Assembly: GCF_002067035.1 (NCBI RefSeq)
Contig: NZ_MVQB01000027.1
Coordinates: 62,001 to 126,000 of the forward strand
Direction: 5' to 3'
From: Methanoregula sp. PtaB.Bin085
Lineage (GTDB): Archaea; Halobacteriota; Methanomicrobia; Methanomicrobiales; Methanospirillaceae
Length of the DNA stretch: 64,000 nucleotides
The notes below the pieces were generated by a model that had not been told where the DNA came from, made no database searches, and saw nothing but the letters and a program-made list of their open reading frames with translations. Of this stretch, positions 30,097-34,833 are shown piece by piece. Numbering within the stretch: the stretch's first letter is position 1; the number at the start of each line of letters is the position of its first letter. The translations under genes were made by a program, and so were the position numbers.

Positions 30097-30492
30097 ATGC
30101 CCGAGGATTCATGGGAGAAAAACCTGTATCCGGGTCCCGGTTACACGATTGACGAAGATAGTCTGCGCCTTCACCAGATCCCCGGCGATTCTATTCGCGT
30201 GAGGGGACATACCCTCGGGGAGAATTATAACCACATCCGCGAATCGGAAATGGACACGCGGTTTGAGGAAGTGCTCCGGAGCGTGGGGCGGGTGTACTTC
30301 TCCCGGTATGGTATCGGGATCCTGGTAATTTCGGTGATTCTGTCCGCGGCAACCTCGGTCATGTCCCCCGAGGGGATCTTTTTCTGGAATGTCATCCTCT
30401 TCGTCATCGTGTGGATAAAATCCGAATTGTCTGCACGGTCACCGGTACGGGCTGAGTGGCAGGATGTCGAGGAGGAGATCGATACCCTGTAA
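30097..30492 (+). CDS. Small membrane protein, unknown function
   Basis: 131 residues. Soluble polar N-terminus (1-65, with DSLRLHQIPGDSIRVRGHTL), two hydrophobic segments at about 72-88 (GIGILVISVILSAATSVM) and 92-108 (IFFWNVILFVIVWI), and an acidic C-terminus. A TATA-like element lies 10-40 bases upstream. No family recognised. Confidence 0.55.
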   Translation: MPEDSWEKNLYPGPGYTIDEDSLRLHQIPGDSIRVRGHTLGENYNHIRESEMDTRFEEVLRSVGRVYFSRYGIGILVISVILSAATSVMSPEGIFFWNVILFVIVWIKSELSARSPVRAEWQDVEEEIDTL

Positions 30493-30847
30493 GGGTGTGC
30501 GCTCCCGGTTCCGAAAGGATTACCTGGCCGCGACGCAACCGCGGTCAATTCACCCGGCAGGATTGTTTTTTTTGTTCGGTATCCGTCCCTTCGTATGGTA
30601 ACGGTGATCGTGAACTGCTTCTTCATCGCAGAGATCCCGGCGCGATCCGGCATTCATACTTCCCGGCGCTGCTGACATCCATTCTCTCACGCCTTTGACG
30701 GAACGGAATACATATTACACTGCATGACGATTTTTTGTCAGAGGCGATATCATCACCGGAACTCACGGGCATGGGACGCCGTACCTGCATACAAACACAA
30801 GGAATGCAACACCCTGCCGCGACAGGAAGTGCGGGTCCCTTGTCCTT
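30493..30847. other. Gap before the channel gene, with promoter
   Basis: A TATA-like ATACATATTA lies at 30706-30716. The true start of the channel protein is probably inside this stretch: an ATG at 30771 is in another frame. Nothing else recognised. Confidence 0.5.
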
Positions 30848-31807
30848 TTGGTTCTTGTCATTGCCTGCTTTACCTGCCCGTCTGCTGCTGACACGTTCGG
30901 CCAGCCGGATGCCGTTTCCGATACCGGCGTATTTACAGTGCCTGCCGGTTCGTCTCCCGCATCCAATACCTCAGAGGGTCCGCAGATCGTCCGCATCGGG
31001 ACCTATGTGGTGGATTTCTCCAATTACAATCCCCGGGAAGGAACGTACCAGACAAATTTCTACGTCACGCTGGACTCCGACCGGCCGGTGAATACCACGG
31101 ACTTCGAGATGATGAACGGGCATGCGGACACGGTCGGGCTCCTTACCGATACCCCGACACGGAAATACTTCCGGGTCTTTGCCTCTCTTGATACCGATCC
31201 CGACTTCCACCGCTTCCCGTTCGACCGGCACACGCTCCAGATCGTTGTCGAGCCGCGGGTAAAGAACATGGAGGAGATGATCCTCGTCATCGACAGGAAT
31301 TCCACCGGACTCGACCCGCTTGCCAGTCTCCCCGGCTGGAAATTCGGTGCAAAACGTGCGTATGTCATGAACCACACCTACGAAGGGGAGGAGATAGCCT
31401 ACTCCCGCGTTGTCTATTCGTACGACATAACGCGGGACTCGCTCTCGACATTTTTAAAGTTCTTCCTCCCGGTGATGCTGATCGTCATCGTCTCCCTCTC
31501 GTCACTCCTGATGAAAGTGACGTCACGGCTCGGCCTCAACGCCTCGATGTTCCTCGCGGCCGTGCTCATCCACTGGCGGATCGCCGACGCCATGCCGATG
31601 GTCGAGTACGCGACCTTCCTTGACTATTTTATGATCGTGACGTATGCTACGCTCGTAATGGTGCTGATATCGGGTATCCTGATCAACCGGTTCAATGAGG
31701 TGAAGGATAGTGCGATGGTCGATATGGTAAGCCGCTGGTCGATCCGGATCATTCCGTCGGTTTCGGTTATTTTGTATTCCGTCCTCTTCCTGACCCTGCT
31801 GGCCTGA
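30848..31807 (+). CDS. Pentameric ligand-gated ion channel homologue
   Basis: 319 residues from TTG 30848. Remnant of a signal peptide (VLVIACFTCPSAADT), a beta-rich extracellular domain (about 45-195) with the Cys-loop-equivalent HRFPFDRHTLQIVVE (Pro124, Asp126; no Cys pair), then four membrane segments: 204-223, 229-247, 256-280 and 300-318. This is the prokaryotic Cys-loop receptor plan. The frame is open upstream to 30728 and encodes a better signal peptide (RKCGSLVLLVLVI), but has no ATG or GTG; ATG 30771 is out of frame, so a frameshift or sequence error near 30775-30840 is possible. The gating ligand is unknown. Confidence 0.75.
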   Translation: MVLVIACFTCPSAADTFGQPDAVSDTGVFTVPAGSSPASNTSEGPQIVRIGTYVVDFSNYNPREGTYQTNFYVTLDSDRPVNTTDFEMMNGHADTVGLLTDTPTRKYFRVFASLDTDPDFHRFPFDRHTLQIVVEPRVKNMEEMILVIDRNSTGLDPLASLPGWKFGAKRAYVMNHTYEGEEIAYSRVVYSYDITRDSLSTFLKFFLPVMLIVIVSLSSLLMKVTSRLGLNASMFLAAVLIHWRIADAMPMVEYATFLDYFMIVTYATLVMVLISGILINRFNEVKDSAMVDMVSRWSIRIIPSVSVILYSVLFLTLLA

Positions 31808-32391: not shown

Positions 32392-32631
32392 AACATTACG
32401 GATATTTCCTGCACCACCTTTTCATGTTTTATAAAAAAATCAGGCGTCAAATCGGGCTGGAAAAGCCGAATGCTCATCGGTTGATGACCTGATGAACATC
32501 TCCTGCCACCCCTTCCTCTATGGCAGGCATCCCAAAAGAATAAAAAGGCCGGCACGCTATCAAACAGCATTCAGAAACCGGAATACTGCCAGATTTCCGG
32601 ATCTGCCAGGAACGGATTGCCAGGTTCGAAC

Positions 32632-34833
32632 ATGGTCCCGCTGCCTCTTCACACCTGCGAAAAGAACAACACCCTGCAGTGGGCAAGCCTGCTGGCAGCT
32701 GCACTCCTTCTTATTACTGTGCTCTGTTCTCCGGCAGCCGCTGCCCGCGACGTGAAAGTCGCCCTCCCCGATCTCAAGCCTACGCTTTTTACCGATGATC
32801 AGGGAAAGCCGGCAGGTTTTTTCGTCGACATCATCAACGACATGGCCGCGCAGGAGGGCTGGAATGTCATCTGGGTCCGTGGGTCACTCTCTGAGAGCAT
32901 GGAACGACTGAAGACCGGCGATATCGACCTCATGACGGGAATCGCTGCCAATCCCGACCGCGAGAAGGTATATGACTTCAGTCACGAGTCGCCCTTCTCA
33001 GTATGGTCGCAGGTCTATGCACGTCCCGGGTCCGGCATCAACACGATCCTTGACCTTGACGGGAAACGGGTAGCCGTAGTCAAGGGGGATATCAGCGGGA
33101 TCGCATTCCGCGACTACGCAAAGAAGTTCGATGTCAATGCCACGTATGTTGAGCGGGATATTCCGACTGATTCTTTTGCGGCAGTTGCAGCCGGAGAAGC
33201 AGATGCCCTTGTGGTGTTCAACACGGCAGGCCAGGAGGACGCGAAAACCTACGGTCTTTCCGAGACTCCCGTGATGTTCAATCCCACTCCGATGAGTTTT
33301 GCCGTACCGAAAGGTAAGAACGCGGATATTCTTCTGGCCCTCGACCGGTATGTTGCGGAAGGAAAGGGCAACCCCTCGTCGGTCTACGGCCAGGCAATGC
33401 AGAAATGGTTTGGTATAAAGGCCGACGGCGGGATAATCCCCCCCTGGCTGTGGGGCGGTCTCGTTATCGCAGCCCTGATTGCCGTCCTCTTCGTTGCCAT
33501 GAGCGTTCTCCTCCGGCGGCAGGTGAGAATAAAGACCGCTGAACTTGCACGGCAGAACAAGGATCTGCAGGCAGAGATCGCGAGTCGCAGGAAGACCGAG
33601 CAGGAGCTTGCCGATGAGATCTCACGGCGCAGGATTCTCATCGACCAGTCACGGGACGGCATCGTCATCCTTGACCAGGAGGGTAAAGTCTATGAAGCGA
33701 ACCGGAGATTCGCGGAGATGCTCGGATATTCGCGTGAGGAGATCCAGCAGCTGCACGTCTGGGAATGGGATGTCCAGATCAAACAGGACCAGATACAGGA
33801 AATGATCCGGACAATCGATGCGCAAGGGGACAATTTCGAGTCCCGCCACCGCAGGAAGAACGGGAGCGTAATCGATGTCGAGATCAGCACGAATGCCGCG
33901 GAATTCTCCGGCCGGAAGCTGATATTCTGTATCGTGCGGGACACCAGCGAACGGAAACGGGCAGAAGAGCAGCTGAAAACGATCAACGAATACCTGCAGT
34001 CTGAGGTGGCGAACCGCAGGAAAGCGGAGACCGAACTGGCACAGAAGAACGCGGAACTCCAGGCGGCGTACGAGCAGCTGGCAGCAACGGAAGAATACCT
34101 CAGGCAAAACTATGAGGAACTCAGGATGAGCGAGAATGCCCTCCTGCAGGCGCGGAAAAAACTGGCCCTCCTGAACACCATGACCCTGCAGGATGTCCAG
34201 ACCGGGATCTTCTCGCTGGCCGGGTATATCCAGCTGGCAAAGACCGGCGGATGCAGCGCGGAGGCTCAGGAGCGTCTCACCAAGGGCGAGGATATCCTGC
34301 GGACCGTGAGAAACTCGATCGACTTCATCAGGAAATACCAGGACCTCGGGATCGGCCAGCCGCGGTGGCAGGAGGTGAATTATGTGCTGCTCAATGCGAT
34401 CTCCCACCTTGACTTCTCCCGGATCTCGCGTGCCGTGGACCTGGCGGATCTCGAGATCTATGCAGATCCCATGCTTGAGCACGTTTTCTTTACCCTGATG
34501 GAGAATGTCCTTGTGCATGGGAAAGGGGCAACCGGTATAACGATCCGGTACCGGCAGGAAGCTGACCACCTCACGATCGTTGTCGAAGACAACGGCCCCG
34601 GCATACCGGCAGAAAAAAAAGAGAGGATCTTTACCCGGGAATTCAAAGGACTGAGCGGGACAAACCTCTTCCTTGCCCGGGAGATCCTGTCGATCACGGG
34701 GATCACCATCCGGGAGACAGGAGTTCCGGGTTCAGGTGCCCGGTTCGAGATTACCGTGCCGGCAGGTGAATACCGCTTCGGCAGGAACGGGGACGATCGC
34801 TCCGGGTCTCCTGCCCGTGCTGAGCCTACATAA
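32632..34833 (+). CDS. Periplasmic-binding-domain PAS sensor kinase lacking the phospho-His
   Basis: 733 residues from ATG 32632. Signal/anchor at 15-35, solute-binding domain (SBP type 3) at about 40-255 (DVKVALPDLKPTLFTDDQGK, MTGIAANPDREKVYDFS), membrane segment at about 275-295 (LWGGLVIAALIAVLFVAM), coiled coil, PAS at about 335-450, second coiled coil, dimerisation region at about 510-580, and HATPase at about 600-720 (N box ENVLVHGKG, G1 VEDNGPGIP). Methanogen kinases of this type carry HD at the H box; here the stretch is MTLQDVQTG with Gln520. It may be a pseudokinase or signal by partner phosphorylation. Confidence 0.88.
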   Translation: MVPLPLHTCEKNNTLQWASLLAAALLLITVLCSPAAAARDVKVALPDLKPTLFTDDQGKPAGFFVDIINDMAAQEGWNVIWVRGSLSESMERLKTGDIDLMTGIAANPDREKVYDFSHESPFSVWSQVYARPGSGINTILDLDGKRVAVVKGDISGIAFRDYAKKFDVNATYVERDIPTDSFAAVAAGEADALVVFNTAGQEDAKTYGLSETPVMFNPTPMSFAVPKGKNADILLALDRYVAEGKGNPSSVYGQAMQKWFGIKADGGIIPPWLWGGLVIAALIAVLFVAMSVLLRRQVRIKTAELARQNKDLQAEIASRRKTEQELADEISRRRILIDQSRDGIVILDQEGKVYEANRRFAEMLGYSREEIQQLHVWEWDVQIKQDQIQEMIRTIDAQGDNFESRHRRKNGSVIDVEISTNAAEFSGRKLIFCIVRDTSERKRAEEQLKTINEYLQSEVANRRKAETELAQKNAELQAAYEQLAATEEYLRQNYEELRMSENALLQARKKLALLNTMTLQDVQTGIFSLAGYIQLAKTGGCSAEAQERLTKGEDILRTVRNSIDFIRKYQDLGIGQPRWQEVNYVLLNAISHLDFSRISRAVDLADLEIYADPMLEHVFFTLMENVLVHGKGATGITIRYRQEADHLTIVVEDNGPGIPAEKKERIFTREFKGLSGTNLFLAREILSITGITIRETGVPGSGARFEITVPAGEYRFGRNGDDRSGSPARAEPT

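What the first reader, a model, noticed from the sequence alone, without database searches (positions are those of the whole stretch)
30706..31807. Archaeal pentameric ligand-gated channel with an odd start
The FPFDRHTL loop and four membrane helices mark a Cys-loop receptor homologue, uncommon in archaea. The best signal peptide lies in frame upstream but lacks an ATG or GTG, while the obvious ATG 30771 is in another frame. This suggests a TTG start, a sequencing error, or a frame change near the N-terminus.
Basis: partly seen in the sequence, partly recalled or inferred. Interest (0 to 1): 0.6.

Follow-up and report, generated by a model that had tools for sequence, protein, structure and literature searches.

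The report
Archaeal channel gene starting at AUC
A neurotransmitter-receptor-like ion channel gene in a methane-producing archaeon appears to begin with the rare start codon AUC, and its relatives across the family keep AUC or AUU at the same place, which suggests that the channel is deliberately made in small amounts.

Summary
Window 30728-31807 (+) is one open frame for a pentameric ligand-gated ion channel (pLGIC) subunit: GLIC-type sequence and fold matches, a PFD Pro-loop, four helices and a signal peptide. No ATG or GTG lies in frame before the hydrophobic core, and ATG 30771 is out of frame. Homologues in 20 genomes (five genera of one family) share a TATA box, a Shine-Dalgarno site and, 7-8 nt downstream, the same column: ATT in 11, ATC in 6 (window 30752-30754), ATG in 1, other in 2. 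Two automatic alignments recover it. The frame after it is open in 19/20, the other two frames in 9 and 10. Two homologues lack any ATG, GTG or TTG downstream of the site; two have no ATG in any frame nearby. The gene most likely starts at AUC/AUU, decoded by initiator Met-tRNA with SD help, presumably keeping channel output low. The start is inferred, not measured. I found no comparable conserved AUU/AUC start reported for archaea in the literature held. The channel itself is an ordinary archaeal pLGIC with a shortened ligand-binding domain. New variant of a known kind.

The parts
30566..30573 (+). T-run, probable terminator of the upstream gene (30097-30492), so the channel gene is a separate transcription unit
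   Evidence: sequence; inferred
30709..30716 (+). TATA box (TACATATT), -43 to -36 from the start codon; most homologues have TTAATATA or similar starting at -41 to -47
30740..30744 (+). Shine-Dalgarno AGAGG; the 17 nt from -20 to -4 give a duplex of -8.5 kcal/mol with GAUCACCUCCU
   Evidence: anti-SD read from 16S of two same-genus genomes
30752..30754 (+). Proposed start codon ATC (ATC 30749 directly before it is a less likely alternative)
   Evidence: column conserved ATT 11 / ATC 6 / ATG 1 / other 2 in 20 genomes
30752..30838 (+). n-region of the signal peptide (I/M-TGTHGHGTPYLHTNTRNATPCRDRKCGS), net positive charge
   Evidence: frame open in 19/20 homologues, mean net charge +2.9 in frame 0 vs 1.35 and 1.05 in the others
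30839..30889 (+). hydrophobic core and c-region of the signal peptide (LVLLVLVIACFTCPSAA); contains the TTG at 30848
   Evidence: cleavage site inferred by eye
30752..31807 (+). pLGIC subunit gene, 351 codons plus stop from the ATC
31214..31237 (+). Pro-loop FPFDRHTL; P of PFD invariant in the alignment
31439..31510 (+). M1 helix
   Evidence: AlphaFold model
31517..31591 (+). M2 pore helix; by gap-free match to the GABA-A chimera R0', G2', S6', L9', D20', P23'
31601..31699 (+). M3 helix
31709..31801 (+). M4 helix
31828..31835 (+). T-run after the stop codon, probable terminator
   Evidence: sequence; inferred

Best explanation
The gene encodes a pLGIC subunit with a secreted N-terminal domain whose translation starts at AUC 30752. 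A short leader (about 10-15 nt, inferred from TATA spacing) carries a Shine-Dalgarno site that places initiator Met-tRNA over AUC; a mismatch at the third base lowers initiation. Relatives keep AUU or AUC at this position, so the weak start is probably the inherited state and serves to keep few channels in the membrane. Shown by sequence: the conserved TATA/SD/AUY arrangement, the open frame, and the lack of a usable standard start in several genomes. Inferred: that initiation occurs there, that Met is inserted, that yield is low, and that this is selected. The channel would assemble as a pentamer and open on an unknown external stimulus.
For: (1) Column conservation: ATT 11, ATC 6, ATG 1, AAT 1, GTT 1 in 20 genomes, found by hand and by two MAFFT modes. 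Columns 0 and +1 are the most conserved (19/20 each) from -60 to +11. (2) SD at about -13 to -8: window -8.5 kcal/mol, L001 -9.5, L005 -9.3, L043 -9.1, against a median of -6.4 for the best standard start in 304 ORFs of the same contig. (3) L034 and L045 have no ATG/GTG/TTG in frame to +130; L001 and L004 have no ATG in any frame from -25 to +130. (4) In the 72 nt after the column, frame 0 has 1 stop in 480 codons, the other frames 31 in 960 (Fisher p 7e-5, phylogeny ignored). (5) L009 has ATG where its close sister L008 has ATT. (6) The three cases where codon or frame is lost (L037 AAT, L050 GTT, L039 in-frame TAA) each have an ATG or GTG nearby. (7) The ATT/ATC ratio does not follow Ile usage in these genes (11 ATT of 17, p 5e-5), and ATG/ATA are rarer than composition predicts. 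(8) Control: in an amidohydrolase family from the same archaeal family, about half of the homologues inspected show ATG at one column, mostly with an SD.
Against: No transcript, ribosome-profiling or peptide data. The n-region evolves nearly neutrally (pN/pS about 0.8), so protein-level support for translation there is weak. 28% of all ATY triplets on the contig have a duplex energy of -5.6 or lower, so SD alone means little. SD is weak in L008, L009, L033, L037 and L050. SD strength is not significantly greater where no other start exists (p 0.10). Several relatives have a later in-frame ATG or GTG that could be used instead. The p-values ignore shared ancestry.
Confidence: 0.84

Rival explanations
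1. Translation starts at TTG 30848 with a very short signal peptide.
For: It is the only standard start codon in frame.
Against: Inside the hydrophobic core, no positively charged n-region, SD -3.8 vs -8.5 for the ATC; no ATG/GTG/TTG in frame downstream of the SD in L034 or L045.
Confidence: 0.04
2. Translation starts at another non-standard codon, such as CTG 30785 in the n-region or ATC 30749.
For: CTG 30785 and ATC 30749 are in frame; MHTNTRNATPCRDRKC would make a good n-region.
Against: CTG 30785 lies in a poorly conserved region without a consistently aligned start-like codon in relatives. ATC 30749 is only 4 nt from the SD and aligns to ACC, ACT, AGC or similar in most relatives.
Confidence: 0.07
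3. A sequencing or assembly error, or a frame change, separates an upstream ATG (30771) from the channel frame.
For: ATG 30771 (MGRRT...) is close, in another frame.
Against: The same lack of an ATG recurs in independent genomes; ATG 30771 is not conserved; L001 and L004 have no nearby ATG in any frame.
Confidence: 0.02
4. The gene is a pseudogene that has lost its start.
For: No standard start.
Against: Gene body under strong purifying selection (window vs L001 pN 0.14, pS 0.54), confident fold prediction, and the same start arrangement across the family.
Confidence: 0.02

Closest known systems
infC (IF3) with AUU/AUC start, bacteria
   Same: Conserved AUU (E. coli) or AUC (Streptomyces) start that lowers initiation (PMC5472188)
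   Different: Bacterial, encodes the fidelity factor itself and is autoregulated by IF3; archaeal start selection uses aIF1, aIF1A and aIF2 instead (PMC7531240). No feedback is shown here
sigR with GTC start, Streptomyces
   Same: A non-canonical start that limits output of a gene that is not itself an initiation factor (PMC5472188)
   Different: Bacterial, GUC, experimentally shown
GLIC / sTeLIC / DeCLIC prokaryotic pLGICs
   Same: Fold, Pro-loop, four helices
   Different: Only about 18% identity to GLIC; ligand-binding domain shortened by roughly 20 residues between the strand FYVTL and MNGH (by eye and the GLIC sequence from memory); no acidic residue at M2 -1'/-2'
Archaeal pLGICs of Methanosarcina, Methanobacterium and Thaumarchaeota
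   Same: Archaeal members of the superfamily (PMC4795631)
   Different: The passages read do not discuss start codons

Membership tests
pentameric ligand-gated ion channel superfamily | Sequence homology to solved pLGICs | tested here: met
   phmmer E 9.5e-16 (GLIC-GABA-A chimera), about 3e-10 (GLIC); profile search E 1e-27 to 1e-48
pentameric ligand-gated ion channel superfamily | Extracellular beta-sandwich plus four-helix membrane domain | tested here: met
   AlphaFold pLDDT 82.5, pTM 0.69; Foldseek TM 0.73 to GLIC; VIA Z about 20
pentameric ligand-gated ion channel superfamily | Pro-loop with conserved PFD | tested here: met
   P110 invariant, F111 and D112 at least 90% conserved
Pfam PF02931 Neur_chan_LBD | Score above the curated cut-off | tested here: not met
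   12.6 bits vs 26; shows divergence of the ligand-binding domain, not a defining property of the superfamily
pentameric ligand-gated ion channel superfamily | Pentamer that conducts ions on ligand binding | not testable with these tools
   needs expression and electrophysiology
eukaryotic Cys-loop receptors | Disulfide-forming cysteines flanking the Pro-loop | tested here: not met
   no cysteines around FPFDRHTL in the window or homologues
genes with a conserved non-canonical (AUU/AUC) start codon | Codon other than AUG/GUG/UUG conserved at the start column with an SD | tested here: met
genes with a conserved non-canonical (AUU/AUC) start codon | Initiation experimentally shown at that codon | not testable with these tools
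   no N-terminal, ribosome-profiling or reporter data

The most novel reading that the evidence does not exclude
A family-wide AUU/AUC start codon maintained by selection on an archaeal ion-channel gene, read through start-codon discrimination by aIF1, so that channel synthesis is coupled to initiation fidelity: an archaeal counterpart of the bacterial infC/sigR strategy.
Probability: 0.3. Interest if true: 0.8.

Novelty: new variant of a known kind. Interest (0 to 1): 0.6.

Why it matters
Conserved AUU/AUC starts are documented for very few genes. In a survey of 36 groups of related prokaryotes, only 1 of 61,358 ancestral AUG starts switched to AUU (PMC5622118), and a review of archaeal initiation names AUG, GUG and UUG as start codons (PMC7531240). 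A family-wide AUU/AUC start in an archaeal gene would be a natural test of how archaea discriminate start codons in vivo. It also means that standard gene finders are likely to truncate this channel and lose its signal peptide, which matters for anyone cloning it for structure or electrophysiology.

Tried and rejected
TTG 30848 start, sequencing error, frameshift from ATG 30771, pseudogene: rejected as above. Conserved gene neighbourhood: none; the downstream gene recurs in only three loci, at varying positions. Protein-level selection in the n-region: near neutral, so not usable as proof. SD strength versus absence of other starts: not significant. A control scan of contig C27 raised an amidohydrolase with an apparent ATT start; homologues place the start about 10 codons further upstream, so that ATT was rejected, which shows that SD plus ATY alone is not evidence. 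The own genome's 16S was not found, so the anti-SD was read from two same-genus genomes. Public annotation of these genes could not be checked. Literature searches found no archaeal AUU/AUC case, but most subscription papers are not held.

Full report
What is there. The window lies in a Methanoregula-like archaeon (contig C27 of a 2.9-Mb, 63-contig assembly; the closest public relative found is a Methanoregula MAG). The + strand frame 30728-31807 is open and encodes a protein with a signal peptide, a beta-rich extracellular domain, the Pro-loop FPFDRHTL and four helices. It is a pLGIC: phmmer matches GLIC and its chimeras (E 1e-10 to 1e-15), the family profile matches DeCLIC, sTeLIC and GLIC (the profile included DeCLIC-like sequences, which favours DeCLIC), and the model matches GLIC and GABA-A/glycine receptors (TM 0.73, Z about 20). 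Twenty-nine of 108 genomes of the family hold a match.

The start problem. In frame, no ATG or GTG precedes the mature protein, and the only TTG (30848) is in the hydrophobic core. ATG 30771 is in another frame. Aligning homologues shows the same layout repeatedly: TATA box at about -45, a T-rich stretch, an AGGAG-type SD at about -13 to -8, then ATC or ATT, then a positively charged stretch leading into the signal peptide. The column was first picked by eye, which could be circular, so it was tested again: two automatic alignments, given the sequences without any anchor at this site, place window ATC 30752 in a column with ATT 11, ATC 6, ATG 1, AAT 1, GTT 1. The 20 sequences come from 20 genomes in five genera and are spread over the family tree (several deep branches are poorly supported). 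Six further, more divergent family members were not counted among the 20; they do not share the full arrangement, and several have an ordinary ATG.

Why a start codon and not an internal Ile codon. In some genomes a stop lies a few codons upstream with no start in between (L033, L034: 5-6 codons). L034 and L045 have no ATG/GTG/TTG in frame downstream to +130, yet their channel domain is intact (L045 is cut by its contig end). Columns 0 and +1 are the most conserved of the region although the following n-region drifts almost neutrally. The ATT/ATC ratio does not follow Ile usage in the same genes. One relative has ATG exactly there (L009). Where the codon or frame is lost, another standard start lies close by (L037, L039, L050).

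Why not other mechanisms. Frame 0 after the column is open in 19/20 against 9 and 10 for the other frames. L001 and L004 have no ATG in any frame nearby, which excludes a conserved frameshift from an AUG. The predicted transcript start, about 26 nt after the TATA centre, falls at about 30737-30742, leaving a leader of roughly 10-15 nt that begins near the SD; this is inferred from general archaeal promoter spacing (own knowledge).

Function. A weak start with a good SD should yield little protein. That low yield is the point, to limit channel number, is inference; in its favour, ATG is one mutation away but is seen once in 18. The gene stands alone between T-runs and has no conserved neighbours, so I cannot name a ligand or pathway. 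By gap-free match to the GABA-A chimera the pore helix has R0', G2', S6', L9', D20'. It lacks the acidic -1'/-2' residue typical of cation channels, but ion selectivity should not be read from that alone.

Known precedents. infC (AUU or AUC) and sigR (GTC) in bacteria (PMC5472188). In archaea aIF1 favours discrimination against non-canonical starts (PMC6237735), and a review names AUG, GUG and UUG as start codons (PMC7531240); the archaeal recoding review does not mention AUU (PMC8211752). Archaeal pLGICs are known (PMC4795631).

Limits. All evidence is comparative. The p-values treat related sequences as independent. The control for chance covers one contig, and a second apparent ATT start found there turned out not to be the conserved start.

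Noticed in passing
contig C27 298092-299460, minus strand (outside the window; L071): A divergent copy of a DadD-like amidohydrolase (another copy, about 52% identical, is on C46) has no ATG/GTG/TTG in at least its first 44 codons. Many homologues start at ATG about 10 codons before LLQDVIVDG; here an ATC lies one codon further up. It may be another non-AUG start or a decayed 5' end.
   Followed up: partly
L048, L049 (and G017:C1:399977, G195:C17:163656): A distinct second pLGIC subfamily in the same genus (25-29% identical), with an ATG before the signal peptide and a retained WTD motif in the ligand-binding domain (L048, L049 read; the other two seen only as matches).
   Followed up: no
L012-L031: DeCLIC-like pLGICs in open frames mostly of about 630-690 residues (large N-terminal extension) occur in several families of the order.
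   Followed up: no
L033 vs L035, first 105 nt after the start column: Near-identical n-region DNA in two genomes of different genera whose gene bodies differ much more; suggests recombination of the 5' end.
   Followed up: no
L039: ATT column kept with an SD, but an in-frame TAA after 8 codons followed at once by GTG; looks like a switch to a standard start or a reinitiation arrangement.
   Followed up: partly
window 32617-34833 +: Fusion of an SBP_bac_3 solute-binding domain, a PAS domain and a histidine-kinase ATPase domain, two genes downstream of the channel.
   Followed up: no
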